Origin: Candidatus Wallbacteria bacterium
Lineage (GTDB): Bacteria > Muiribacteriota > JAQTZZ01
Reading direction: 5' to 3'
Assembly: GCA_028687545.1 (NCBI GenBank)
Contig: JAQTZZ010000019.1
Coordinates: forward strand, 1-64,000
DNA length: 64,000 nt
Shown here: one piece after another, positions 7,149 to 46,919 of the stretch
Numbering within the stretch: the stretch's first letter is position 1
Layout of the letters: each line of letters opens with the position of its first letter
The notes under the pieces: generated by a model
Database searches by the model: none
Told to the model about the DNA's origin: nothing
Seen by the model: the letters and a program-made list of their open reading frames with translations, nothing else
Program-made: the position numbers and the translations under genes

Positions 7149-8757
7149 AAACAGTGGTCACTCCTTCCTTCAGCTTGCGAATTCCGGAATCCCTGATGCT
7201 TACTATGCCTTCCAGCCTTGCCTTGGCTTCAATCTCCAGCGGGGAAGTTTTACGGATGATCAGTTCCTTGACCGTGTCTGAGAGCGGAAAAACCTCCATG
7301 ATCGCTGTGCGTTCAAAATATCCGGTATAATTGCAATGTTCGCAGCCTGCACCCTTGAAGACATCGAATCCCATGTATTTTCCATCAGCCACCTTGCAGA
7401 ACGGGCAGATTTTCCTGACCAGACGCTGGGTAAGAATCAGGTTGAAAGCTGCAATAAACTGGTATGATTCGATGCCCAGGTTGATCAGACGGAAAATACT
7501 GTCAATGACATGATTGGCATGAATAGTGGAAAAAACGAGATGTCCGGTCAGTGCTGCGTTGATGGCAATGTCTGCAGTCTCAAAGTCGCGGATTTCACCC
7601 ACCATGATTTTATCCGGATCATGCCTGACTATTGATCGCAACCCTTTTTCGAATGAGAGGCCTTTCTTTTCATTGACCGGGATCTGAACTATGTCCGGCA
7701 GCTGATATTCAACCGGGTCTTCGATGGTGATGATCTTATCTTCAGTCCGCTTAATGAATTTGAGGGCTGAATAAAGTGTAGTGGTTTTCCCTGAGCCGGT
7801 AGGTCCTGCTACCAGTATCATTCCGTAAGGCAGACGCACATTTTTCTTAAACACTTCGAGCTGCTCAGGAAAAAAACCAAGCTGTTCCAGGTCAAGTGAT
7901 AGATTCTGCTTGTCCAGGATACGGATTACGATCACTTCGCCGAAAATGGAAGGCAGCACTGAAACACGGAAATCGACGCTGCGTTCCTTGAGGTTGATCC
8001 GGAATCTGCCGTCCTGGGGCGTGCGTTTTTCCGCGATATCAAGATTTGCCATGATCTTGATCCTGGAAACCAGCTGTTCGTGGATTGAGCGATCAAGGTC
8101 CCTGGCGATTTCCTGCAGAATACCGTCGATCCTGTATTTAACCTTGAGATTGTTCTCGTAACACTCGATGTGAATATCGCTCGCCCTTTTTTCCAGGGCA
8201 TTCAGGATCAGGCTGTTCACCAGCTTGATGATTGGATTCTCTATGTTTTTCAGATTTTCCACGATCACTTCGTTGTCTTCCTGGGTGGCAATGTGGCCCC
8301 CGAAATCCTTGACCATCTCGTCAATCACAGACTGGGCCGAAAAATTCAGGCGGATGGCCTTGAAGATCTCGTTTTCAATACCGGCCGCAGGTGTGATCCT
8401 CGATTTGAGCATCCGGCTCATGCGGTCCCTGCTTTTAACATCCAGAGGGTTGGCCATCACCAGAGTGACTGCATCGTCCCTGCGTTCATAGGGGATCATC
8501 TTCTCAGCGATCAGAAGTGAGGGATCAAGGTTTCGAAATTCTTCAGGAAGTATGATGTCTGAAAGCCTGATCAGCGGAATTTCAAGCGCTTCAGCCAGGG
8601 CGGCAGCCAGCTCTTCCGCAGTGAGATATCCCTGGTTGACGAAAAAATCGTAGAGTTTGCCTGCCGGCACTTCTTTGAAATACTCGAGCTGATTTCTGGG
8701 AATTATCCCTTTTGTCAGAAAATATTCCTTGATGCTGGAAGGTTTTTCAGTGCTCAT
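7117..8757 (-). CDS. Type IV pilus / type II secretion assembly ATPase (PilB/GspE)
   Basis: 546 residues. The N-terminal MshEN/GspE-N domain (about 1-150) contains LSDIILPEEFRNLDPSLLIAEK. The hexameric ATPase core follows: SDIHIECYENNLKVKYRIDG (about 193), Walker A GPTGSGKT (318-325), Asp box IEDPVEYQL, Walker B RHDPDKIMVGEIRD and the His box. A tetracysteine zinc site, CPFC and CEHC, is near residue 455. It powers extension of pilin or pseudopilin fibres from the inner membrane. The start overlaps the upstream small gene by 11 bp. No PilC/GspF platform, PilT or pilin gene is in the window. Confidence 0.93.
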   Translation of the reverse strand: MSTEKPSSIKEYFLTKGIIPRNQLEYFKEVPAGKLYDFFVNQGYLTAEELAAALAEALEIPLIRLSDIILPEEFRNLDPSLLIAEKMIPYERRDDAVTLVMANPLDVKSRDRMSRMLKSRITPAAGIENEIFKAIRLNFSAQSVIDEMVKDFGGHIATQEDNEVIVENLKNIENPIIKLVNSLILNALEKRASDIHIECYENNLKVKYRIDGILQEIARDLDRSIHEQLVSRIKIMANLDIAEKRTPQDGRFRINLKERSVDFRVSVLPSIFGEVIVIRILDKQNLSLDLEQLGFFPEQLEVFKKNVRLPYGMILVAGPTGSGKTTTLYSALKFIKRTEDKIITIEDPVEYQLPDIVQIPVNEKKGLSFEKGLRSIVRHDPDKIMVGEIRDFETADIAINAALTGHLVFSTIHANHVIDSIFRLINLGIESYQFIAAFNLILTQRLVRKICPFCKVADGKYMGFDVFKGAGCEHCNYTGYFERTAIMEVFPLSDTVKELIIRKTSPLEIEAKARLEGIVSIRDSGIRKLKEGVTTVFELNRVTFEK

Positions 8758-35673: not shown

Positions 35674-38421
35674 ATGGTTGAAATTAAAATCAAACAAGAC
35701 AGGCGATCAACTGTTCCTTTGAGCATTAACGAGATCAGAAGTCGCGCGTTAGCATTTTCCAAAGAATGGGCAGAAGAAAAAAGTGAAAACGCTGAAGCTC
35801 AGACTTTTTGGAATGATTTTTTCCATGTGTTTGGTTTTAACCGCCGAAGGCTTGCAAGTTTTGAAGAACCTGCAAAAAAGTCTGATGGGCAAGGCGGCTT
35901 TATCGACCTGCTCTGGAGAAGCGTGCTGTTGGTTGAACACAAATCGCGTGGGAAGAATCTTGATAAAGCTTTTAACCAAGCACTTGATTATTTCCCGGGG
36001 TTGAAAGACCGAGATTTGCCTCGCTATATTCTGGTGTCAGATTTTGCCAGATTCCGGCTTTATGATCTTGAAAATAAAGCACAACACGAATTCCAGCTAT
36101 CCGAACTTTATAAGAATATTAAGCTATTTAACTTTATTGCAGGATATAGAACAGAGGCCTTAAAACCGGAAGATCCTGCTAACATTGAAGCAGCCGAACT
36201 CATGGGGAAGCTCCATGATCAACTAAAAGAGGTAGGATATGCTGGGCATCACCTTGAAGTGTATCTTGTACGCTTGCTTTTTTGCCTGTTTGCAGATGAT
36301 ACAGCTATTTTTGAAAGAGGACACTTTCAGGACTACATTGAGACTAAGACGCAAGAGGATGGAAGCGATCTTGCTCAACACCTTAGCACAATTTTTTATA
36401 TTCTAAACACGCCAGAGGAGCAGCGATTGACGAATCTTGATGATCACTTGGCTTCTTTTCCTTATGTGAATGGCAAACTTTTTTCAGAGCAGCTGCCCCC
36501 TGCTGCCTTTGATTCAAAGATGAGACAAATACTTCTCGAATGTGCTGCATTGGATTGGAGCCGTATCAGTCCGGCTATATTTGGTTCGCTGTTTCAGTCT
36601 GTCATGATTCCCGAACTGCGGAGGAACCTTGGTGCGCACTATACTACTGAGCAGAACATTCTGAAAGTCATTCACCCTCTATTTTTAGACAAGTTAATAG
36701 GTGAATTCAACAAGTTAAAGACTAAGCGCAGCAAGGCAAAGTTGGAAGAATTCCACAAACGTCTTGCAAAGTTGAAGTTTCTTGATCCAGCATGTGGTTG
36801 CGGAAACTTTCTTGTTATCAGTTATCGTGAGTTGAGAATGCTGGAATTGGAAGTGTTAAGAGAGATTTACAAGAAGGAAAAAAATGCTGTGTTGGAGATT
36901 TCGCATATAGTTTTGCTGGACGTAGATCAGTTTTTCGGGATTGAGATTGAGGAATTTCCTGCCCAGATAGCTCAAGTTGCGCTCTGGATGACTGATCATC
37001 AAATGAACATGCGCATCAGCGAGGAGTTTGGACAGTATTTCAGCCGTCTTCCACTTACAAAAGCACCAAGCATTGTTTGCGGTAATGCATTACAAATAGA
37101 TTGGTCCACAATTATCAAACCTACAGAACTATCCTTTATTCTTGGAAATCCTCCATTTATTGGGCACCATCTCCAGATTCCATCACAGAAAGCTGAAATG
37201 CTGGCAATTTATGGAAAAGAAGAGAAATCAGCAGGAGTGATGGACTATGTCACAGCCTGGTATTGCAAAGCAGTTTCATACATTAAAGGTACTGCTATAA
37301 AAGTTGCCTATGTTTCTACAAACTCAATCACTCAAGGGGAGCAAGTTGGCATACTATGGCGCGCCCTCTTACGGCACAATAAGGTTTCAATACATTTTGC
37401 ACACCGCACTTTTAAATGGACCAGTGAGGCAAAAGGAAAAGCAGCGGTTTACTGTGTAATAATTGGCTTCGCTGAATTTGATTCTGATAAAAAATGGCTT
37501 TATGAGTATGAAAGTCCAGATGGAGAGCCACATAAAATCAAGGTCAAAAATATTAATGCATATTTGGTTGACGCACCATGGATATTGCTTGATAACCAGT
37601 CCAAAAACCAATTCGGAATGCCGGAAATGATGTATGGCAATAAACCAACTGATGGAGGGCATTTCCTTTTTACAGATAGCGAAAAAGAGGCTTTTCTTTT
37701 AGATGAACCCTTAGCAGCTCAATTTATAAAGCCCTTTATTAGCGCTAAAGAATATTTACATGGAGAAAAAAGGTGGGTTGTCTGGCTTGTAGGTGCATCA
37801 CCAAGTGAAATCAGTTCTATGCCAAAAGTAAAAGATAGAATTAAAGCTGTTGAAGCTTTCCGTAAATCAAGTAAGGCTCCAACCACACAAAATTATCCTT
37901 ATCCATCACTATTCAGACAAGTGACTCAACCAGAAGAAAAGTACGTATTAATACCACGACACACTTCCGAAAATCGTGTATATATCCCATTTGGTTTTTT
38001 TGATAAAGAGAATATCGTTGCAGATAGCTGTCTATCACTTCCAGGTGCGACACTTTTCCACTTTGGAATCCTTCAGTCAGCCATGCACATGGCCTGGGTA
38101 AGAGCAGTTTGTGGCAGACTGAAAGGCGATTACCGATATTCCAAAGATATCGTATACAACAATTTCCCCTGGCCAGAAACATCTGAGAAAAATATACTTG
38201 AAATTGAAAAGGCGGCTCAGCAAGTGCTTGATGCTCGTGCTCAGTTTCCTGAAAGCTGCCTGGCTGATCTTTACAATGTACTCACAATGCCGCCAGTGTT
38301 GATGAAAGCTCATAAAGAACTCGATAAAGTCGTGGATGCGGCCTATGGGAAAGTCAGATTTAACAGTGAAGCGGAGAGGGTGGCTTTTTTGTTTGAAATG
38401 TATAAGGAAAAGAGGAGTTAG
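35674..38421 (+). CDS. MmeI-like type IIL restriction-modification enzyme
   Basis: 915 residues, the usual length of single-chain MmeI enzymes. The N-terminal nuclease domain has Asp78 and Glu88-His-Lys90 in the D-X9-EXK arrangement characteristic of MmeI. A helical spacer (about 150-320) follows. The gamma-class N6-adenine methyltransferase has motif I LDPACGCGNFL (about 370) and motif IV GNPPFIGHH. Then come a target-recognition domain and a C-terminal helical part. One protein both methylates one strand and cuts downstream. It follows the TIR gene by 11 bp. The recognition sequence cannot be read from sequence. All key motifs are intact. Confidence 0.9.
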   Translation: MVEIKIKQDRRSTVPLSINEIRSRALAFSKEWAEEKSENAEAQTFWNDFFHVFGFNRRRLASFEEPAKKSDGQGGFIDLLWRSVLLVEHKSRGKNLDKAFNQALDYFPGLKDRDLPRYILVSDFARFRLYDLENKAQHEFQLSELYKNIKLFNFIAGYRTEALKPEDPANIEAAELMGKLHDQLKEVGYAGHHLEVYLVRLLFCLFADDTAIFERGHFQDYIETKTQEDGSDLAQHLSTIFYILNTPEEQRLTNLDDHLASFPYVNGKLFSEQLPPAAFDSKMRQILLECAALDWSRISPAIFGSLFQSVMIPELRRNLGAHYTTEQNILKVIHPLFLDKLIGEFNKLKTKRSKAKLEEFHKRLAKLKFLDPACGCGNFLVISYRELRMLELEVLREIYKKEKNAVLEISHIVLLDVDQFFGIEIEEFPAQIAQVALWMTDHQMNMRISEEFGQYFSRLPLTKAPSIVCGNALQIDWSTIIKPTELSFILGNPPFIGHHLQIPSQKAEMLAIYGKEEKSAGVMDYVTAWYCKAVSYIKGTAIKVAYVSTNSITQGEQVGILWRALLRHNKVSIHFAHRTFKWTSEAKGKAAVYCVIIGFAEFDSDKKWLYEYESPDGEPHKIKVKNINAYLVDAPWILLDNQSKNQFGMPEMMYGNKPTDGGHFLFTDSEKEAFLLDEPLAAQFIKPFISAKEYLHGEKRWVVWLVGASPSEISSMPKVKDRIKAVEAFRKSSKAPTTQNYPYPSLFRQVTQPEEKYVLIPRHTSENRVYIPFGFFDKENIVADSCLSLPGATLFHFGILQSAMHMAWVRAVCGRLKGDYRYSKDIVYNNFPWPETSEKNILEIEKAAQQVLDARAQFPESCLADLYNVLTMPPVLMKAHKELDKVVDAAYGKVRFNSEAERVAFLFEMYKEKRS

Positions 38422-38429
38422 AAAACATA

Positions 38430-39101
38430 ATGGGAAGCAAAAAGCACAACATACTCAATTTTTTAAACTCAATTCTCGTTTTAATCATCCTTGTTTGGGC
38501 TGCCATCTTGTTTTTCATCCCGCGAGAATCATCTGTATTATGGAGTTTTACATATCCACTGACCGGTGATGATACACTCCAGACTATTACGGTAGAAATC
38601 AATATTACAAGTAAATATGTAATTTCAGATCAAATCCCAGCTTTTATTTGTATTAATATTCAAACTCCTATTATTGACACTTTTGAAGTTACCATACAAC
38701 ACACTAAGTTTACAGCAACTGCACCCATACTTGTCTCTTCCCTACACAAAGAAGGAACTCTTTTTACAGGCAAGTATTATGGGAAAATCCTCTTCACTAA
38801 CCCCGGTTTAGCCTCTCTCGAAGGTAAACTTCATAGTTTGTATAATAAAAAGCCTTTTGAAAAAGAATTTCGATATTTTGGACAAATTGAAACTCAAAGA
38901 TATATGGATTATCAGATGGTGCACTTGACTAACATTCTTGCAGCACTAACTTTATTAACTTTTGGCCTAACGTTCTTACTGGCAAAACAAGAGCTGAGAG
39001 AAATAGTGGCTTGCATTGGTTGCTTTTCTAAAATATCTAAGTCTGTCTATGGTTATCTCATTTCTTTATTCTGTAAGAATAAGCAGAAAGTGAAAAAATG
39101 A
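38430..39101 (+). CDS. Two-helix membrane protein within the defence island
   Basis: 223 residues: an N-terminal helix (about 10-30), an extracytoplasmic beta-rich domain (about 40-165), a second helix (about 168-190) and a basic cytoplasmic tail. No family is recognised. It begins 8 bp after the MmeI-like gene and overlaps darT by 4 bp, so it is transcribed with both. It may be an accessory of either system or a separate membrane-acting effector. Confidence 0.6.
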   Translation: MGSKKHNILNFLNSILVLIILVWAAILFFIPRESSVLWSFTYPLTGDDTLQTITVEINITSKYVISDQIPAFICINIQTPIIDTFEVTIQHTKFTATAPILVSSLHKEGTLFTGKYYGKILFTNPGLASLEGKLHSLYNKKPFEKEFRYFGQIETQRYMDYQMVHLTNILAALTLLTFGLTFLLAKQELREIVACIGCFSKISKSVYGYLISLFCKNKQKVKK

Positions 39102-39715
39102 CTGAAAAAAAAAGCATCAGAGATCAGAAATTAATTTACCATCTCACGCCATTGGAAAACCTGCCGTCAATTGCTGAAAATGGTCTGTTGCCCCGTTCCA
39201 AAGTACAGGCGCTTGAACTTGAATACACTGATATTGCAGATCAGGAGATTATAGCATCCAGGGTTCCCTACAATCTTGATCAATTCGTTCCCTTTCACTT
39301 TTTCGCTAAAAATCCTTTCCAGGGAGCGGTTATTAAAAAACATCCTGGTGAAAGTTTTATCCTGATAACAATACATAGGAACTTTGCCCGCAAAAACAAT
39401 TTCAAAATCCTGGATAAGCATCCGCTTTCCCTGCAACCTTTTGAAAAACCGGAATTAATTGACTATGCTGAAGGCTTTGAAAAGATTGATTGGAAAGCCA
39501 TGGATAAGCGTGATTATACTGATCCCAACTGCAAGCAAGTATGCATGGCTGAATGTTTGTCTCCTGTATCATTGAAAATTACTGACTTTCACAGTATCTA
39601 CACTGAAACAGAGGAAATCCAGCTTGAAATTTACAGGTATTTCAGATCAAAGCATATACATTATAATGATGTCCTTTTCTTTCCTAATATGTTTGTGAAA
39701 GTGAGCGAGCAGTGA
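39098..39715 (+). CDS. darT: DarT-family ADP-ribosyltransferase toxin
   Basis: 205 residues, DUF4433/DarT fold. The NAD-binding start LIYHLTPLENLPSIAENGLLPRS, the VPFHFFAKNPF segment (family form VPFYFxxRxPM) and the catalytic Glu in CMAECLSP are visible. DarT attaches ADP-ribose to bases in single-stranded DNA and blocks replication, including of phage. It overlaps the DarG gene (GTGA overlap), the normal toxin-antitoxin order for this family. Confidence 0.85.
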   Translation: MTEKKSIRDQKLIYHLTPLENLPSIAENGLLPRSKVQALELEYTDIADQEIIASRVPYNLDQFVPFHFFAKNPFQGAVIKKHPGESFILITIHRNFARKNNFKILDKHPLSLQPFEKPELIDYAEGFEKIDWKAMDKRDYTDPNCKQVCMAECLSPVSLKITDFHSIYTETEEIQLEIYRYFRSKHIHYNDVLFFPNMFVKVSEQ

Positions 39716-40764
39716 TTTTTTATAAAAAAGGCGACATCCTCGAAGAAAAGACCCAGGCGCTGGTGAATACTGTCAATTGCGAAGGCTATATGGGCAAGGG
39801 TATTGCCTATAAATTCAAGTGCAGATTTCCTGAAAACAACGCAGATTATCAGAAAGCCTGCAAGAGCAAGACGCTGACTATCGGGACATTACATTGGTTC
39901 AAAGAAAACGGACAGTTGATCATCAATTTCCCTACGAAAGACAAGTGGAGAGAAAACTCGAAACTTGAGTATATCGAAAAAGGCATGGCTGAACTCGTAA
40001 AACTGATCAAGGAGCTGGGAGTCAAATCCATTGCTATCCCACCCCTTGGTTGCGGCAATGGCGGCTTGAGCTGGAATGATGTGTTGAAAATTGTCGTGAA
40101 ACATATCAAACCCTTACAGGAAGAAATTGATTTTGTTGTTTATGAGCCTTTTCAGCCTGCACGCATTATTAATGTAGATGATGCACTATCCAAAGCACCG
40201 AAACTGACAATCTCGCATTATTTCCTGATCCAGATTAAAAAGAGGCTCAAGAAATTCACCAAGACCAGGCTTCAAAAAGCCGCTTTTTTCATGAATTATT
40301 TCTCCAGGCAGGACTTTTTCAAATTCGATGGATATTTATACGGGCCGTATGCTCATTCTATTGACATTCTATCCACGCAGATCAAGGAATATCAGGATTA
40401 CTACAAGGTAAAATCAGCGACAGCCGCAGAAAATCTTAAGGACACACTGATAAGCAACCAGACGCATGATAAAATGGAGTTTTTTGAGCCGTTTATTTCA
40501 AAGGCTGCTGAATTTATCGACTCACTGACTGTAGACCGTGACCTTGAGCTATATTCCAGTATCTGCTATCTGGTGAATAAGTCCAAATCTGCTTCAGCCA
40601 AGGAGATATTCAACTCCCTGCAGAAATGTTCGCCTGAAAAAGCCGCCAAATTTACCTGGCAGGATGTGGAAGCAGCCATCAATGTTTTGACTGACAGAGG
40701 CATACTCACAACTGAACTCATGACAGTGTCTGTGCCGGAGCAATTCATGCTGAAGGCATTATGA
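39712..40764 (+). CDS. darG: DarG antitoxin: macrodomain plus C-terminal toxin-binding domain
   Basis: 350 residues, GTG start in the overlap with darT. The N-terminal macrodomain (about 1-150) has the hydrolase signatures ALVNTVNCEGYMGKGIAYKFK and IPPLGCGNGGLSW. It removes ADP-ribose from DNA. The C-terminal part (about 165-350, starting at TISHYFLIQIKKRLKKFTKTRLQKAAFFMNYFSR) is the DUF4065-like domain that binds DarT. All expected parts are present, so the pair looks active. Confidence 0.9.
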   Translation: MIFYKKGDILEEKTQALVNTVNCEGYMGKGIAYKFKCRFPENNADYQKACKSKTLTIGTLHWFKENGQLIINFPTKDKWRENSKLEYIEKGMAELVKLIKELGVKSIAIPPLGCGNGGLSWNDVLKIVVKHIKPLQEEIDFVVYEPFQPARIINVDDALSKAPKLTISHYFLIQIKKRLKKFTKTRLQKAAFFMNYFSRQDFFKFDGYLYGPYAHSIDILSTQIKEYQDYYKVKSATAAENLKDTLISNQTHDKMEFFEPFISKAAEFIDSLTVDRDLELYSSICYLVNKSKSASAKEIFNSLQKCSPEKAAKFTWQDVEAAINVLTDRGILTTELMTVSVPEQFMLKAL

Positions 40765-40947: not shown

Positions 40948-41889
40948 TCAACGACCAAGAAGTTGATGATACTTAGCGTACACTTTCTGTTTTGTGGCTT
41001 CGTCCACGCGATACATTTCCAGAGGGGACAACGTTTCGGCAACATTGGATTCCATCCATCTGACCCAGACTTTTTTGTCGCAATACATATCTATGCGGTT
41101 ATTTGAAGACTCGAAATGACCACCCGTGTCGTGAGCAAACCAGTAGCCGTCGTGTGCTTCGCCATTGGGAAGCTTCAGATTTCTCGTTTTTGGGATGTAA
41201 TACACTCCTTCATAAGGTATTTCTTTCTCATTTACAGCCAGAGTGTGGAAGGGGACCATCCAATAGCGTCGGGCAGTGATGCCTTTGCATCCGCTGGGCA
41301 ATATATTAAAGCGGTAACCTTCAAACTTCACACAGCTGCCATCTTTTAGAATTCCACTGCCTGTCTTACAGAGCACCATGAAGAATTTACTGCTCACTCT
41401 AGCAATCACCTTTCCTGAAGTGGACATAACTGGCCTGGCGCTACCTGTTGGAAAATCACTCTCTTTGGGAATATTGATGTCCTTACAACCATTGGGTTTA
41501 ATGCTGAAGCAACGATTGGCAAAGTTCAAGCACAGATTGTTTTTATTGAGAATTCCGCTGCCTTCCATGCAGAGAGCCTTGTAAAATTTACTGCTCACTT
41601 TGGCAATCTCCTTGCCAGTGGTTCCCAAAACCTGTGAGTCGCTACTAACTGAAAAATCAGACTCCCTGGCTGTAAAGTAAAAGCTCACCTTCTGGTCCTC
41701 TATCCTGCTAAATGCACTTATATTGGGCGGGATTTCGTTGGAAGAGATTCTGGGTGCTGGAGTGTTGATGGATGATGTTTCTTTTTGCTCTGCTCCGGTA
41801 CCACGCTCCGTCGTAGTTAATCTATCTTTTTGAGATGTAGATCTGGCTTTTTCCTCACCGATATCAGGTGGAGACTTTGGTCCTGACAT
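40948..41889 (-). CDS. 3D-domain peptidoglycan-lytic protein with a shared N-terminal tag
   Basis: 313 residues, no signal peptide. Residues 1-55 are a polar, disordered tag (KARSTS, DRLTT, RGTGA, NTPA) also found in the next gene upstream (42805-41966). Residues about 85-200 hold two tandem copies of a segment (SSKFYKALCMEGSGIL... / SSKFFMVLCKTGSGIL...), each ending CFSI or FNI with GC. The 3D domain (about 205-285) carries the three aspartates in HDGYWFAHDTGG and RIDMYC. 3D/MltA-like folds act on peptidoglycan glycan strands. The missing export signal suggests delivery through a dedicated apparatus or a holin-like route. Confidence 0.75.
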   Translation of the reverse strand: MSGPKSPPDIGEEKARSTSQKDRLTTTERGTGAEQKETSSINTPAPRISSNEIPPNISAFSRIEDQKVSFYFTARESDFSVSSDSQVLGTTGKEIAKVSSKFYKALCMEGSGILNKNNLCLNFANRCFSIKPNGCKDINIPKESDFPTGSARPVMSTSGKVIARVSSKFFMVLCKTGSGILKDGSCVKFEGYRFNILPSGCKGITARRYWMVPFHTLAVNEKEIPYEGVYYIPKTRNLKLPNGEAHDGYWFAHDTGGHFESSNNRIDMYCDKKVWVRWMESNVAETLSPLEMYRVDEATKQKVYAKYHQLLGR

Positions 41890-41965
41890 AAAAAATGTTC
41901 CTTTCTAAAATTTATTGGTAAGATGATTTATGATTAAATTAAATCGTTGTTTAAAATAAATCTTC

Positions 41966-42805
41966 TTATTTGCCATTGTCAGTAGGATGATAAACCCAAT
42001 ATTGTGTAGTAGGATTTTTAATAGATTCCCTAAGAGGGCGCCCATATTCATAGTTATTGGTACCAGCTTGAGCAACTGCAGGCCCATCTGGCAATGCTAT
42101 TTTTTTCTGGGGATTCTTTTTTTTGTGTGCTTTTCCACTTTTAACGAGAGCCTTCCGATCATTTCCATTACTATTTAGTAAAACATTCTTAGTGGTTTCG
42201 TCGTCTGGAGTAAGGTAGTTTCTGCCTAGCGTTAATGCAACCGCTTTTAGTAAACTCTCTTTTTCATTATCTTTCGGACGCACAACCCACACATGACTAT
42301 TATGAGCAGCCCTTAACATTACACCAATGGCAGGATAACCATCATCAGCTTCTGCCTGAGCACGTTTCCAATCCACTTTAATCCAGCCACGCTTCTTACC
42401 CCAACCCCTGAGCCAATACCATAGACAATTTGCTTTTATATCAGGGTAAATTGCTTCCCCCTCATGTTCTGATATTTTAAGACCCATATTTTTCATGACG
42501 TCACGTGCGAAGTAATTGCAAAAAGTATTTACCCCGTCTGATTGATATTTTTTTGTGACATGACAATCAAGTATCGCTTTTAAATATTTATCTCTGCGTT
42601 CATTACTTTGTTGGACAGTTTGCTTGACTTGTTGAGTACTGTTTTCAGTAAGTTTTGGACTTGTGCTTGTTGCTCTGGCTGGAGTATTGTTGGCCACAGT
42701 TTTTTGCTGACCTGCTCCAGTACCTCGCGCTTCAGTTGTCATTCTATCTTGTGGTGACGTTGATCTGGCTTTTTCTACGCCAGCATCATTTGGAGGATTT
42801 GACAT
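41966..42805 (-). CDS. Cysteine-peptidase-like (CHAP/NlpC-type) protein with the shared N-terminal tag
   Basis: 279 residues, no signal peptide. Residues 1-50 repeat the tag of the 3D protein (EKARSTS, DRMTT, RGTGA, NTPA). The middle domain has Cys96 in NTFCNYFARDVMKNMG and His171 in NSHVWVVRP, the spacing and context of CHAP/NlpC-P60 amidases, including cell-wall-cutting effectors of type VI secretion. The C-terminus (about 215-279) is basic and polar. The predicted substrate is the peptide part of peptidoglycan. No immunity gene is recognisable beside it. The enzyme class is inferred from the Cys/His pattern. Confidence 0.65.
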   Translation of the reverse strand: MSNPPNDAGVEKARSTSPQDRMTTEARGTGAGQQKTVANNTPARATSTSPKLTENSTQQVKQTVQQSNERRDKYLKAILDCHVTKKYQSDGVNTFCNYFARDVMKNMGLKISEHEGEAIYPDIKANCLWYWLRGWGKKRGWIKVDWKRAQAEADDGYPAIGVMLRAAHNSHVWVVRPKDNEKESLLKAVALTLGRNYLTPDDETTKNVLLNSNGNDRKALVKSGKAHKKKNPQKKIALPDGPAVAQAGTNNYEYGRPLRESIKNPTTQYWVYHPTDNGK

Positions 42806-43001
42806 GAAATGTACCCTTTTTGTTATTTATAGTTTGGAAGTGTCCCGCCATAGTTGCCTAAAACCTTAATTACTGGCGGAACTTGCTTTAGTGCAACTTA
42901 TTCTCTCTTTCTGCAGACGCAGTGTGTAAAAAGGTGCACTTGGACACCCCACGTGGATTTCAGCGCATCTCCTTGACTGATTTGCCAAAATCAAATATCA
43001 A

Positions 43002-45929
43002 TTATTGGTTGGGGTCAATCGATATACCTACACCTTTATCTACCAATATCCGACGCTCGATTTCCGGGTCTTCAAGCTCACCGGCCACCAATCGGGCTGC
43101 CAGACGCAAATTTTCCAATTCCGCATGCCTCACTTCAGCTTTCACCTTGCGCACATCTTCAACCCGATGTAACAGTTTGAAATCCTCTAGCAAAGGATGT
43201 GAACCTGGCAGTGCTTCAATAAACAATTGACCCACAGGAATACTAATATCGTCCCAGGTACGCCTGGCTGCCGTCAAATAGTCCAACAACTCAGCACACA
43301 GATTATGTCGTTCCCTTTCACTAGCTGCTTGCCATCTAGAATCAAACTTCACCCAATCAAATTCAACAGCCTGGTCAGGATCGCGCACCCCCAGATAATC
43401 ATCAACAAAATCCTGGAGCATAAAATCAGTTAGATCGGTATTTTTCTTTAAGGGAAAAATCATGTAATTACCCTTATATCCAATGGGATTGTCCAAATCA
43501 GCGATCTCGTTAAGTTGAACTTTATCTTTAGGTAATGGAAGAACTCCTCCCCCCTTATAATCCCCCTGAATTGTAATATACTTTTGAAATTGCTTAACTG
43601 CATCTGGAATCGTTACTTTTTGATCACCAGCAAGCACTGGATGCTGTGGTTTTGCTACCGCAGACCCGGAAACCACTGAAAAATCCGAGAGTTCTGGATT
43701 AACCCCGGGGCATGTAATTTCTTGTTTATAAAGCCTGAAGAATCTTTGGTCAGGTGGTTCATGATCCCATATCGCCTGCATGTAATACAAAATATTTTGT
43801 TTGACATGAATACGGAGCTGATCAATTGCCACATGGCGGTTATACTGCTGCTGGAGGGCTGCCTCATATTTCTGGGTAGCTTTTTCATACGCATCGGTTG
43901 TCTGTTTTAATCTGTCCTGAGCATCCGCAAGGGCTGCTTCGGCATATTCCAGGCGAGTTTTAATTGCCTTGCGGTATGCCTCCAGTTTGTCTGCCTCTAA
44001 TTCCTCAATCTTACCCGCTACTCCAAACGAAAATATCTTTGCAACAGTAGGTATATCACTTGCAGCAGCTTTTACAAGATCTTCTTTTTCAGTTGTATCA
44101 GTCAGCCAGTTGCGAAGTGTGTCACGCATGTCGATTTGAGCATTAACTTTGCTCTCCAAAGCTTTTGCAAGTCCCAACTGATTTTTCCAATGCGCTTTTA
44201 AAACTTCAATTGATACTTCATCGCCTGCCATTCCCGATGTAAGATACTCAAGTGCCGGTCTGAAAGAATCATCCAACAAAACTCGAGATAGAATCCATTG
44301 ATATTTAATCAACCAGGATTCATCAATTTCATTGGGGGCAGGGACATCTTGTGCTACTAAAATAACAGCCTGGGCGCGGTAAATAGATTCACTAATTCGA
44401 TATCTACGCTGCAATTCATAAAATAAATAAGTAACAGTAATTTCATTGTTTGGGTTGGAAATCTCTCCGGAAGTGGTTTCTTCTGTTTCAGTTGATGAGA
44501 TGCAGTCAACTTCAACCGATCTTTCAAGGCGATATTCTTGTGCTGCCTTTAGGGTGGCTTCATGGAATTCTTTCTTGTTCGCGACAGATTCCGTGGCTTG
44601 ACTAAGTGAATATTCGGAAGACGTATCCATACTTCCTATGCCTATATTAAACGAACCATGCGCAGTCATCTTGAAATTTGTAGCAGTATTCGCTTTTTGC
44701 ATGATGTCAGCTTCGGCACGGCTTGTTTCTGAGGATTGTTCGGAGTGGGAAGACATGGATTTTTCCAGCTCCTTAACCGCGCGGGAGGTCTTTACATTTA
44801 CTTTCTTAGAATATTTACGCGTTTCTCCTGGCGCCAGAGGGATAGTGGCAACCAAGTCTCCTGCCTGGTATTCACCTGGTTCCCATTTTTGCCGATAGGT
44901 GAGCATAACCCCAAAATTGTAAGATCCAGGAGCGAAAACATCGAATGCATATGGCTCGGATATTGATTTTCCGATCTCTCTGATCAGTTTCTGTAGACGG
45001 CCTCCCTGCGTTTTAGCAGACTCAATAATATTCGCAACGGTATTCTTATCTGTTTCACTAACTTCTGATGGTGCTGACCAGCTAGTATAACCACCTCCAA
45101 CTGAACCATCGGCTGCCGGACTTGTGTAAGAATAATGTTGCTCTTGATAATACTTCGCTGCTATCCGGATAATGGCTAGACGCTGCTCATCATTCATGAT
45201 ACTCCAATAAGGTTCCGCATCAGGGAATATTAAACGGACAGCGTGTGGCATCGGTGGTATAGATGATGTAATCATATTTTCAACATCTCTGATAAATTCA
45301 TTAAGATCATCTATGTCCATTTCGCTTTCATCATCGCTTTTACATGGATTTAATAAAAAACCGGGCAATTGGATTCCGAGATTGTGACATCCTATTACAG
45401 CTTCCCGGAATAATTGTTCAACCTGTTTTTTTAAGCTGGCATCAAAGGCATGAACCCAGATATTTTCAAAGGCAAGTTGAAGAACATGAAAATCATGAAA
45501 AGAAGTTGCATCTGCCGGACCGCCCTTGAGGTTTTTTATTGCTTGGAGATCGCCTAGAACAGATTCGACATCTGGGCGAGACGGCAAAAGTTTCATGACT
45601 TGTTCGGACACACTGAGTAAAATTGCATTGCGCGGATCATCGGGTGTTGCAGAAGCAGCCATCAATTTACAAAGCGTATCAAGATGACCCAACGCTTCGC
45701 CTGCATCTTGCAGCTTGATTGTACCTTTGTTAACTTCCGTAAATTGATCAATAATCGCAACCAATATCGGAAGTGCTGTGCTATCAGCAGGACTGTTAAG
45801 AAAGCTTTTAAGGTCCTTTAGTTCGGTTAATACAGCATTTATCCCTGTCTCTTTAAAGATAGGAGTCTGTAATTCTTTGATTTGTTCAACAACACAATCC
45901 ATCACTGCCTGATTATTATTAATTGGCAT
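43002..45929 (-). CDS. Large coiled-coil protein of unknown family, possible structural or delivery component
   Basis: 975 residues, no signal peptide or membrane helix. The N-terminal 220 residues are helical. Next is a globular part (about 225-420) with YSYTSPAADGSVGGGYTSW and FAPGSYNFGVMLTYRQKWEPGEY, then LAPGETRKYSKKV, a phrase like those of structural proteins that attach filaments. A Ser/Glu-rich coil (about 390-470) and a long coiled coil (about 640-740, EAALADAQDRLKQTTDAYEKA) follow, then a C-terminal domain. It lies 48 bp after the transthyretin-like gene on the same strand, with the two tagged enzymes further downstream. The function is unknown; size and context suggest a scaffold or translocator. 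Confidence 0.6.
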   Translation of the reverse strand: MPINNNQAVMDCVVEQIKELQTPIFKETGINAVLTELKDLKSFLNSPADSTALPILVAIIDQFTEVNKGTIKLQDAGEALGHLDTLCKLMAASATPDDPRNAILLSVSEQVMKLLPSRPDVESVLGDLQAIKNLKGGPADATSFHDFHVLQLAFENIWVHAFDASLKKQVEQLFREAVIGCHNLGIQLPGFLLNPCKSDDESEMDIDDLNEFIRDVENMITSSIPPMPHAVRLIFPDAEPYWSIMNDEQRLAIIRIAAKYYQEQHYSYTSPAADGSVGGGYTSWSAPSEVSETDKNTVANIIESAKTQGGRLQKLIREIGKSISEPYAFDVFAPGSYNFGVMLTYRQKWEPGEYQAGDLVATIPLAPGETRKYSKKVNVKTSRAVKELEKSMSSHSEQSSETSRAEADIMQKANTATNFKMTAHGSFNIGIGSMDTSSEYSLSQATESVANKKEFHEATLKAAQEYRLERSVEVDCISSTETEETTSGEISNPNNEITVTYLFYELQRRYRISESIYRAQAVILVAQDVPAPNEIDESWLIKYQWILSRVLLDDSFRPALEYLTSGMAGDEVSIEVLKAHWKNQLGLAKALESKVNAQIDMRDTLRNWLTDTTEKEDLVKAAASDIPTVAKIFSFGVAGKIEELEADKLEAYRKAIKTRLEYAEAALADAQDRLKQTTDAYEKATQKYEAALQQQYNRHVAIDQLRIHVKQNILYYMQAIWDHEPPDQRFFRLYKQEITCPGVNPELSDFSVVSGSAVAKPQHPVLAGDQKVTIPDAVKQFQKYITIQGDYKGGGVLPLPKDKVQLNEIADLDNPIGYKGNYMIFPLKKNTDLTDFMLQDFVDDYLGVRDPDQAVEFDWVKFDSRWQAASERERHNLCAELLDYLTAARRTWDDISIPVGQLFIEALPGSHPLLEDFKLLHRVEDVRKVKAEVRHAELENLRLAARLVAGELEDPEIERRILVDKGVGISIDPNQ

Positions 45930-45977
45930 ATTCTCCTTCTCCTTTACTTAGTTAATTTTGCCTGAGTTTGCATGAAA

Positions 45978-46919
45978 TTATTTTTCATGCTCTGCGATGT
46001 ATTTATTCACAAGGTCTTCCGCGGATGGGATGTTAATATCACGGACCCGGATAAGGTCAGTCACGCCGCGATTAGCTTCAAACTTTTTTTTCAGCTCGTC
46101 TTTCTCGATTCTTCCTGTAATTTTACCGTTATCAATTTTTAACCCAATCGTTTGTAAATCATCTTCGCTAAGAGTCAGACGAAATTTGCCTTGAATCTCA
46201 TTGAAACGCTCACAGCTCTTAATTATGACCTCGTTCTGCATACGTTCAAGGTGAGAGGGATCCTTGAGAAGTCGCTTACGATTCTTTAAGTGCTTTGGAA
46301 TAGCTGATAAGTTTTTAAATTTCTCTTTTGCCGATGCCCTTATTTCTGCCGCTTTATCTGATTCAACTTGCATTCTAGGTGCTAATTTGACCTTTAAGTT
46401 ATCGCGAAAAATATAGGCTTGTTCAATCGCATTAAACAAATGCAGACTGGCAGTTTCACTCTTGTTATCGATTCTCTGGGAAGTATTTGATGGAATTTGA
46501 TGTTCATCAAGTTGTGCCTGTAATAACCGGATGATATAAGCTTCTTCTGAACCGGCATCATTTCTAGGTATTGATGATATATAGAGTATTCGCTGCTCTG
46601 GAGGCAATGGATAAGGGCGCTTAACGTCTCGAATATCTTCAGGGGCGAATACTACAATAAGCAGATCAGGACGTGTCTCATTGCCGGAAAAATCTAGCTC
46701 ATCACTGCTAAAGGCAAATACCCCATCCTGATTTGTCAAAACCGATCCAATTCTTTTGCCTAAATGCCCCAGACTTTCTGGCATAGATTCTCGAAGATTT
46801 AGGCTGCTAATAGAAGCAATTCCTTGTGTGGTTCTATCTGAGTCATAAGCTGCAATCACTAAATTGGGGATACCTGCATTGGACTCTTTTACCAGTACAC
46901 GCCCATAAATTTTCTTCAT
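45978..46919 (-). CDS. Protein with N-terminal transthyretin/carboxypeptidase-regulatory-like domain
   Basis: 313 residues. The first 110 residues have the pattern of a transthyretin-like beta sandwich: KIYGRVLVKESNAGIPNLVIAAYDSD, IGSVLTNQDGVFAFSSDEL, PDLLIVVFAPED. The rest is helical and charged with no recognised family. It is the first gene of the minus-strand cluster with the 975-residue protein and the two tagged enzymes. Similar beta modules occur at the N-terminus of some insecticidal-toxin-like and surface proteins, which is suggestive only. There is no signal peptide. Confidence 0.6.
   Translation of the reverse strand: MKKIYGRVLVKESNAGIPNLVIAAYDSDRTTQGIASISSLNLRESMPESLGHLGKRIGSVLTNQDGVFAFSSDELDFSGNETRPDLLIVVFAPEDIRDVKRPYPLPPEQRILYISSIPRNDAGSEEAYIIRLLQAQLDEHQIPSNTSQRIDNKSETASLHLFNAIEQAYIFRDNLKVKLAPRMQVESDKAAEIRASAKEKFKNLSAIPKHLKNRKRLLKDPSHLERMQNEVIIKSCERFNEIQGKFRLTLSEDDLQTIGLKIDNGKITGRIEKDELKKKFEANRGVTDLIRVRDINIPSAEDLVNKYIAEHEK

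What the first reader, a model, noticed from the sequence alone, without database searches (positions are those of the whole stretch)
40948..46919. Four-gene cluster with two unrelated cell-wall enzymes that share one N-terminal tag
Seen: a 3D-domain protein and a CHAP/NlpC-like protein, different folds, both begin with the same polar segment of about 45 residues (KARSTS, DR-TT, RGTGA, NTPA), and neither has a signal peptide. They lie downstream of a 975-residue coiled-coil protein of unknown family and a transthyretin-like protein, all on one strand in an AT-rich accessory region. Known: packaging or targeting tags are N-terminal in several contractile and other secretion systems. Inference: the tag sends two peptidoglycan-cutting effectors to one delivery device, of which the large protein may be a part.
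Basis: partly seen in the sequence, partly recalled or inferred. Interest (0 to 1): 0.82.

Follow-up and report, generated by a model that had tools for sequence, protein, structure and literature searches.

The report
Carrier protein with tagged toxin cargo
A rare gene module scattered across bacteria and archaea pairs one large protein of no known family with ever-changing toxin-like proteins encoded right behind it, many of which start with the same kind of short repeated tag, so it looks like an undescribed way of carrying toxins.

Summary
The four genes and the shared N-terminal tag are real (52% identity over 57 residues, E about 1e-10; purifying selection, dN/dS about 0.2-0.3). Two corrections. 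First, the "transthyretin-like" and 975-residue proteins are halves of one protein: most homologues are single ~1,060-1,370-residue chains, and the split is shared only with the sister sequence. Second, the tag is one version of a wider pattern. Homologues of the large protein ("carrier") are rare and scattered over at least eight bacterial and archaeal phyla. In 24 of 24 loci a same-strand gene follows the carrier within 200 nt (background 41%, p = 4e-10). These "cargo" proteins differ; some carry pre-toxin TG or M15/extensin-like peptidase domains, two share only their N-terminal repeats, and many begin with disordered tandem RG[T/I/L/V] motifs (12 of 25 with two or more copies, against 4 of 423 other ORFs). 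There is no signal peptide, no link to contractile systems, and no family match in Pfam, NCBIfam, PADLOC or PDB sequences. Best explanation: a polymorphic-toxin system with its own carrier, here loaded with two probable peptidoglycan enzymes. Binding, release and translocation are inferred; the tag is not universal; the carrier model is only medium confidence.

The parts
45978..46919 (-). N-terminal (transthyretin-like) part of the carrier, encoded as a separate gene here
   Evidence: Aligns to the N-terminus of single-chain carriers in L003, L004, L005, L009, L012, L013, L017, L021, L022 and others; separate gene also in sister L002
43002..45929 (-). Main part of the carrier (975 aa, family in no library searched)
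   Evidence: Homologues in bacteria and archaea; no Pfam/NCBIfam/PADLOC/PDB-sequence family
43704..45074 (-). Carrier residues 286-742: four long antiparallel strands with a helical insertion, then a two-helix coiled-coil hairpin ending near the conserved MQAIWDHEPPDQRFFRLY
   Evidence: AlphaFold2 models m042bdf75f270 and md8d2f92f4f08, mean pLDDT 58.7 and 69.8; alignment A3
43995..44096 (-). Tip loop of the coiled-coil hairpin (residues 612-645), hydrophobic in many homologues
   Evidence: Hydropathy per homologue; inferred membrane-contact site
41966..42805 (-). Cargo 1: 279 aa, putative papain-like (CHAP/NlpC-like) enzyme
   Evidence: Core 42272-42550 matches a Paenibacillus plasmid protein with TTYCNVFA...HGHVVVVRP
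42641..42805 (-). N-terminal tag of cargo 1 (55 aa)
40948..41889 (-). Cargo 2: 313 aa with C-terminal 3D (lytic transglycosylase-type) domain, about 41077-41244
   Evidence: Pfam 3D E 0.0028, below cut-off; three Asp motifs in the sequence
41737..41889 (-). N-terminal tag of cargo 2 (51 aa)

Best explanation
The cluster is one copy of a mobile polymorphic-toxin module. A large carrier (transthyretin-like N-terminus plus the 975-residue body) is made together with one or more cargo proteins from the next gene(s). In many systems the cargo begins with a disordered, repeated Arg-containing tag that most likely docks on the carrier. The carrier-cargo complex leaves the producing cell without a Sec signal, probably by lysis or vesicles, and the carrier's hairpin-rich body contacts a target envelope and hands the cargo over. 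In this window the cargo are two probable peptidoglycan enzymes, so the target would be a bacterial wall. Shown: carrier-cargo gene linkage in every locus, diversity and toxin signatures of cargo, a recurrent repeated tag, absence of signal peptides, exchange between domains of life. Inferred: tag-carrier binding, release, target contact, delivery.
For: In 24/24 loci a same-strand gene starts within 200 nt of the carrier's end, against 41% of background pairs, p = 4e-10. Cargo are mostly unrelated to each other: BLAST links only a few pairs, and L065/L066 and the window pair share only tags. Toxin signatures: PT-TG in L003, L021, L022 above cut-off and weakly in L083; extensin-like/M15 in L003b and L012. 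L021 and L083 share a trunk but not their C-termini, as polymorphic toxins do. RG[TILV] motif: 32 in the first 150 aa of 25 cargo against 6.8 in shuffles (maximum 16 of 2,000), and two or more copies in 12/25 against 4/423 other ORFs. DRxT[TS]..R occurs in 4 of 521 ORFs, all of them cargo N-termini of the window, L002 and L064 carriers, which fall in one supported carrier clade of seven. The tag is under purifying selection. The carrier+cargo unit sits at otherwise unrelated sites in two Sinorhizobium plasmids as a 5.5-kb, 93%-identical block. Archaeal carriers fall in at least three places in the tree.
Against: About 10 of 25 cargo have no RG motif in the first 150 residues, so either recognition is not by the tag alone or several adaptor types exist. 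The motif was named after looking at the sequences; of the loci fetched later L064 and L084 show it, while L065, L066 and L083 lack a comparable tag of that type. The carrier has no solved relative, its model is of low to medium confidence, and no pore-former or translocase matched. No immunity genes were recognised. No experiment links carrier to cargo.
Confidence: 0.6

Rival explanations
1. The carrier is an adaptor or chaperone that loads the cargo onto a known machine encoded elsewhere (contractile injection system, T6SS or other), and does not itself deliver anything.
For: Disordered polar N-termini are the known loading signal of extracellular contractile systems (PMC11297309); a protein with transthyretin-like repeats sits in a cyanobacterial locus together with DUF4157-type proteins (L070).
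Against: A contractile sheath is found in 10 of 22 carrier genomes and in 22 of 38 controls, and not at all in the window's own 97%-complete genome. The methanogen and Methanophagales carrier genomes tested had no sheath hit. Other secretion systems were not searched.
Confidence: 0.2
2. Intracellular toxin-chaperone or phage-defence module: the carrier holds the toxin inactive inside the cell and releases it on infection.
For: No signal peptide on either protein; the window copy lies beside DarTG in an AT-rich island.
Against: Peptidoglycan enzymes (3D, M15-like, probable CHAP) have no substrate in the cytosol; PT-TG is a domain of exported polymorphic toxins (general knowledge); no PADLOC match.
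Confidence: 0.1
3. The shared tag is only a duplicated disordered linker and the RG motifs reflect composition; the co-located genes form an adhesin or envelope-remodelling set without delivery.
For: Tags are low-complexity; a third or more of cargo lack the motif; the carrier has a long coiled coil and a transthyretin-like domain, common in surface proteins.
Against: Motif counts exceed composition-preserving shuffles about five-fold; tag dN/dS about 0.2-0.3; cargo include pre-toxin TG proteins; no signal for surface export.
Confidence: 0.1

Closest known systems
Polymorphic toxin systems (Zhang et al. 2012, PMC3482391)
   Same: Variable C-terminal toxins, pre-toxin TG domain, patchy distribution, lateral exchange
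   Different: The trafficking partner is a carrier family matching none of the libraries searched, and is not one of the export routes named there; present in methanogens and a haloarchaeon, where that paper calls classical polymorphic toxin systems scarce; no recognised immunity gene
Extracellular contractile injection systems (PVC/Afp) and their effectors
   Same: Effectors lacking Sec signals with polar, disordered N-terminal loading segments (PMC11297309)
   Different: No sheath found in the window genome and no enrichment in carrier genomes; a repeated sequence motif here, whereas for the eCIS signal that paper reports no conserved sequence
Streptomyces umbrella toxin particles (PMC11062931)
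   Same: Large protein with long coiled coil, linked to variable toxins
   Different: UmbC carries a TAT signal, ALF repeats and the toxin on the same chain and assembles with UmbA/UmbB; here the toxin is a separate chain and no ALF repeat or signal was found
Tc toxins and other binary toxins with separate carrier and enzyme chains (from general knowledge)
   Same: Carrier and variable enzyme made as separate chains from adjacent genes, no Sec signal
   Different: No sequence or fold match of the carrier to any solved toxin

Membership tests
Polymorphic toxin system | Variable toxin regions behind conserved trunks or trafficking segments | tested here: met
   L021/L083 share residues ~70-370 but not C-termini; L003b/L012 share the peptidase part behind different N-termini
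Polymorphic toxin system | Known pre-toxin or toxin domains | tested here: met
   PT-TG above cut-off in L003, L021, L022; extensin-like_C in L003b; window cargo itself: only 3D, below cut-off
Polymorphic toxin system | Immunity gene next to the toxin | tested here: inconclusive
   No immunity candidate beside the window cargo (next gene is convergent DarG-like); downstream neighbours elsewhere were inspected only by eye
Extracellular contractile injection system effector set | Sheath/tube/baseplate operon in the genome | tested here: not met
   Sheath PF04984 absent from G000; 10/22 carrier genomes against 22/38 controls; tube and baseplate not searched
Umbrella toxin (UmbC) | ALF repeats and TAT signal | tested here: not met
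   No ALF match in Pfam for carriers or cargo; no signal-like N-terminus
3D-domain lytic enzyme (PF06725) | Score over Pfam cut-off and three catalytic-site Asp motifs | tested here: inconclusive
   18.3 bits against cut-off 23.8; three Asp motifs present in the sequence
CHAP/NlpC-P60 peptidase | Profile match | tested here: not met
   No match in Pfam, PHROGs, NCBIfam or PDB sequences; only a Cys...His layout shared with a Paenibacillus protein, so it may work like one without being shown to be one
Transthyretin-like / carboxypeptidase regulatory-like fold | Profile match of the N-terminal domain | tested here: inconclusive
   No Pfam match in the window protein; one carrier matches CarboxypepD_reg at 0.0011; other proteins sharing the domain match TTR-52/CarboxypepD_reg

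The most novel reading that the evidence does not exclude
A self-contained protein-delivery device not described before: one large protein, exchanged between bacteria and archaea, that recruits unrelated toxins through short repeated Arg-Gly-type tags and carries them across target envelopes without any contractile or membrane-embedded secretion machine.
Probability: 0.35. Interest if true: 0.88.

Novelty: new variant of a known kind. Interest (0 to 1): 0.7.

Why it matters
If right, it adds a trafficking route to polymorphic toxins, one also present in methanogens and a haloarchaeon, where toxin delivery is poorly known. It also offers a short, modular loading tag that can be tested directly. 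The carrier gene is a handle for finding new toxin domains, because a variable gene follows it in every locus examined.

Tried and rejected
Carrier against PDB by sequence and by fold: only coiled-coil or low-TM matches (IpaB coil, Smc, Wzc; Tpp/Cry78 hits aligned at rmsd over 20 A), not accepted. Fold search of viral proteins: two Yasminevirus proteins at E 1e-4 and 5e-4 but TM below 0.35, left as a lead. Viral contigs and phages: no carrier relative and no cargo relative. Contractile-system dependence tested and not supported. Other genomes of the window's phylum: 0 of 39 carry it, so no close relatives to compare. Tag search in the own genome: only the two known copies. Literature searches found no description of such a pair. 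L011 was dropped as independent evidence because its contig is nearly identical to L007. Toxin calls by eye (nuclease-like and HExxH-like C-termini in L009, L023, L065, L066) were not confirmed by Pfam and are not counted.

Full report
CHECK OF THE OBSERVATION. The two downstream proteins share only their first ~55 residues (52.6% over 57 columns, E about 1e-10). At the DNA level the tags differ mostly at silent sites (dS about 1.1, dN about 0.30; core 0.91 and 0.15), so the peptide is being kept although the copies are old. The sample is short, so these ratios are rough. Neither cargo nor carrier has a signal peptide-like segment. The 3D label is plausible but below Pfam's cut-off. The CHAP label rests only on a Cys...His layout shared with a 149-aa protein on a Paenibacillus plasmid.

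WHAT THE LARGE PROTEIN IS. Scans of 85,000 species genomes and of plasmids found about two dozen relatives at 28-48% identity in Pseudomonadota, Thermodesulfobacteriota, Myxococcota, Bacteroidota, Cyanobacteriota, Chloroflexota, Acidobacteriota, methanogenic and methanophagal archaea and a haloarchaeon. In nearly all of them the transthyretin-like protein and the 975-residue protein are a single chain. The exceptions include the window and its sister L002 (Burkholderiaceae), which share the split. The family is rare: 1 of 40 genomes in the window's phylum, 5 of 35 in one myxococcal order with full-length copies, 3 of 186 in a methanogen order with long copies, and 2 of 391, 2 of 399, 1 of 342 and 1 of 392 in four other orders, where most of the hits are the seeds themselves. 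The tree needs at least three changes between archaea and bacteria, so the gene has most likely moved between domains. No library knows it.

WHAT FOLLOWS IT. In 24 of 24 carrier loci the next gene lies on the same strand within 200 nt, most often within 35 nt, against 41% of background pairs (p = 4e-10; ORF calling was mechanical). These next genes are mostly unrelated to each other. Three carry the pre-toxin TG domain above cut-off, in a betaproteobacterium, a haloarchaeon and Sinorhizobium, and a fourth weakly. Two carry an extensin-like/M15 peptidase end behind different N-termini. L021 (haloarchaeon) and L083 (Cytophagales-type order) share a trunk but not their C-termini. This is the anatomy of polymorphic toxins (PMC3482391). 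Two Sinorhizobium plasmids hold carrier plus cargo as a 5.5-kb block, 93% identical, at otherwise unrelated sites.

THE TAG. Many cargo open with a polar stretch holding copies of a short Arg motif: SQRGTFSRGTMSRGTE (L007), PARGTSSRGTNRGTQQ (L012, at residue 92), GSRGIANRGIS (L020), SNRGIQNRCVGNRGTA (L008), LEQRGVSDRGTTDRFG (L002), LDRGTSDRGRDDRATG (L064), ARGTGA and ERGTGA in the window. In the first 150 residues of 25 cargo, RG[TILV] occurs 32 times against 6.8 in shuffles (maximum 16 in 2,000). Twelve of 25 cargo have two or more copies, against 4 of 423 other ORFs. The motif was chosen after seeing the data; loci fetched later gave it in L064 and L084 but not, as a tandem tag, in L065, L066 or L083. 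L065 and L066, from two myxococcal genomes, instead carry PNPAT-type repeats and share only that 27-residue segment, repeating the window's situation. The sub-pattern DRxT[TS]..R is found in 4 of 521 ORFs, all cargo of the window, L002 and L064, whose carriers lie in one supported clade of seven. That is what co-inheritance of tag and carrier would give, though the pattern was derived from the first two of these. About ten cargo have no RG motif, so the tag is common, not universal.

HOW IT MAY WORK. AlphaFold models are of medium confidence (pLDDT 58.7 for the whole 975-residue part, 69.8 for residues 286-742). They show four very long antiparallel strands with a helical insertion, then a long two-helix hairpin whose tip is hydrophobic in many homologues, then a conserved C-terminal domain. 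No solved fold matched. The simplest reading is a carrier that binds cargo through the tag and touches a target membrane with its hairpin tips. Binding, exit from the cell and handover are all inferred. A contractile machine is not required: its sheath is missing from the window's genome and not enriched with the carrier.

VERDICT. It is best filed as a polymorphic-toxin system with a new carrier. Whether the carrier is a translocating device of its own remains open.

Noticed in passing
window 39098-40764 (+): DarT-type ssDNA ADP-ribosyltransferase followed by a macro-domain protein (DarG-like), a DarTG toxin-antitoxin pair convergent with the cluster; a large methyltransferase-type ORF lies further upstream at 35674-38421.
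   Followed up: partly
L022 8409-13917 and L097 4408-9908: Carrier plus cargo as a 5.5-kb block of 93% DNA identity at otherwise unrelated sites of two Sinorhizobium plasmids, as if moved as a unit.
   Followed up: partly
L024 (Sinorhizobium medicae pSymA) 8001-8090: A 30-residue remnant of the carrier's most conserved motif persists on many S. medicae symbiosis plasmids not far from nif/nod genes; probably a decayed copy.
   Followed up: no
L088, L089, L091: Archaeal neighbourhoods pairing a short transthyretin-like protein with a protein holding HYDHGS...CQSASG (clan CD peptidase-like by eye); in L088 and L091 a third, PqqD-like protein follows.
   Followed up: no
L084 1085-4360: Carrier gene of a genome in the Methanosarcinales-type order interrupted by one in-frame TAG with the frame continuing; could be a pyrrolysine codon or a nonsense mutation.
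   Followed up: no
L014, L019, L065: A formylglycine-enzyme-like (SUMF1-type, by eye) gene follows the cargo with no gap in myxococcal genomes.
   Followed up: no
L070: A protein with two transthyretin-like/carboxypeptidase-regulatory repeats sits beside DUF4157-like (eCIS-type, by eye) proteins in the cyanobacterium that also has carrier L013.
   Followed up: no
L011 and L007: A contig labelled Desulfobacterales is nearly identical to one labelled Methanophagales, so one of the two assemblies is contaminated.
   Followed up: partly
model md8d2f92f4f08 (window 43704-45074): Weak fold matches of the carrier's central region to two uncharacterised Yasminevirus (giant virus) proteins, E 1e-4 and 5e-4 with low TM-scores.
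   Followed up: no
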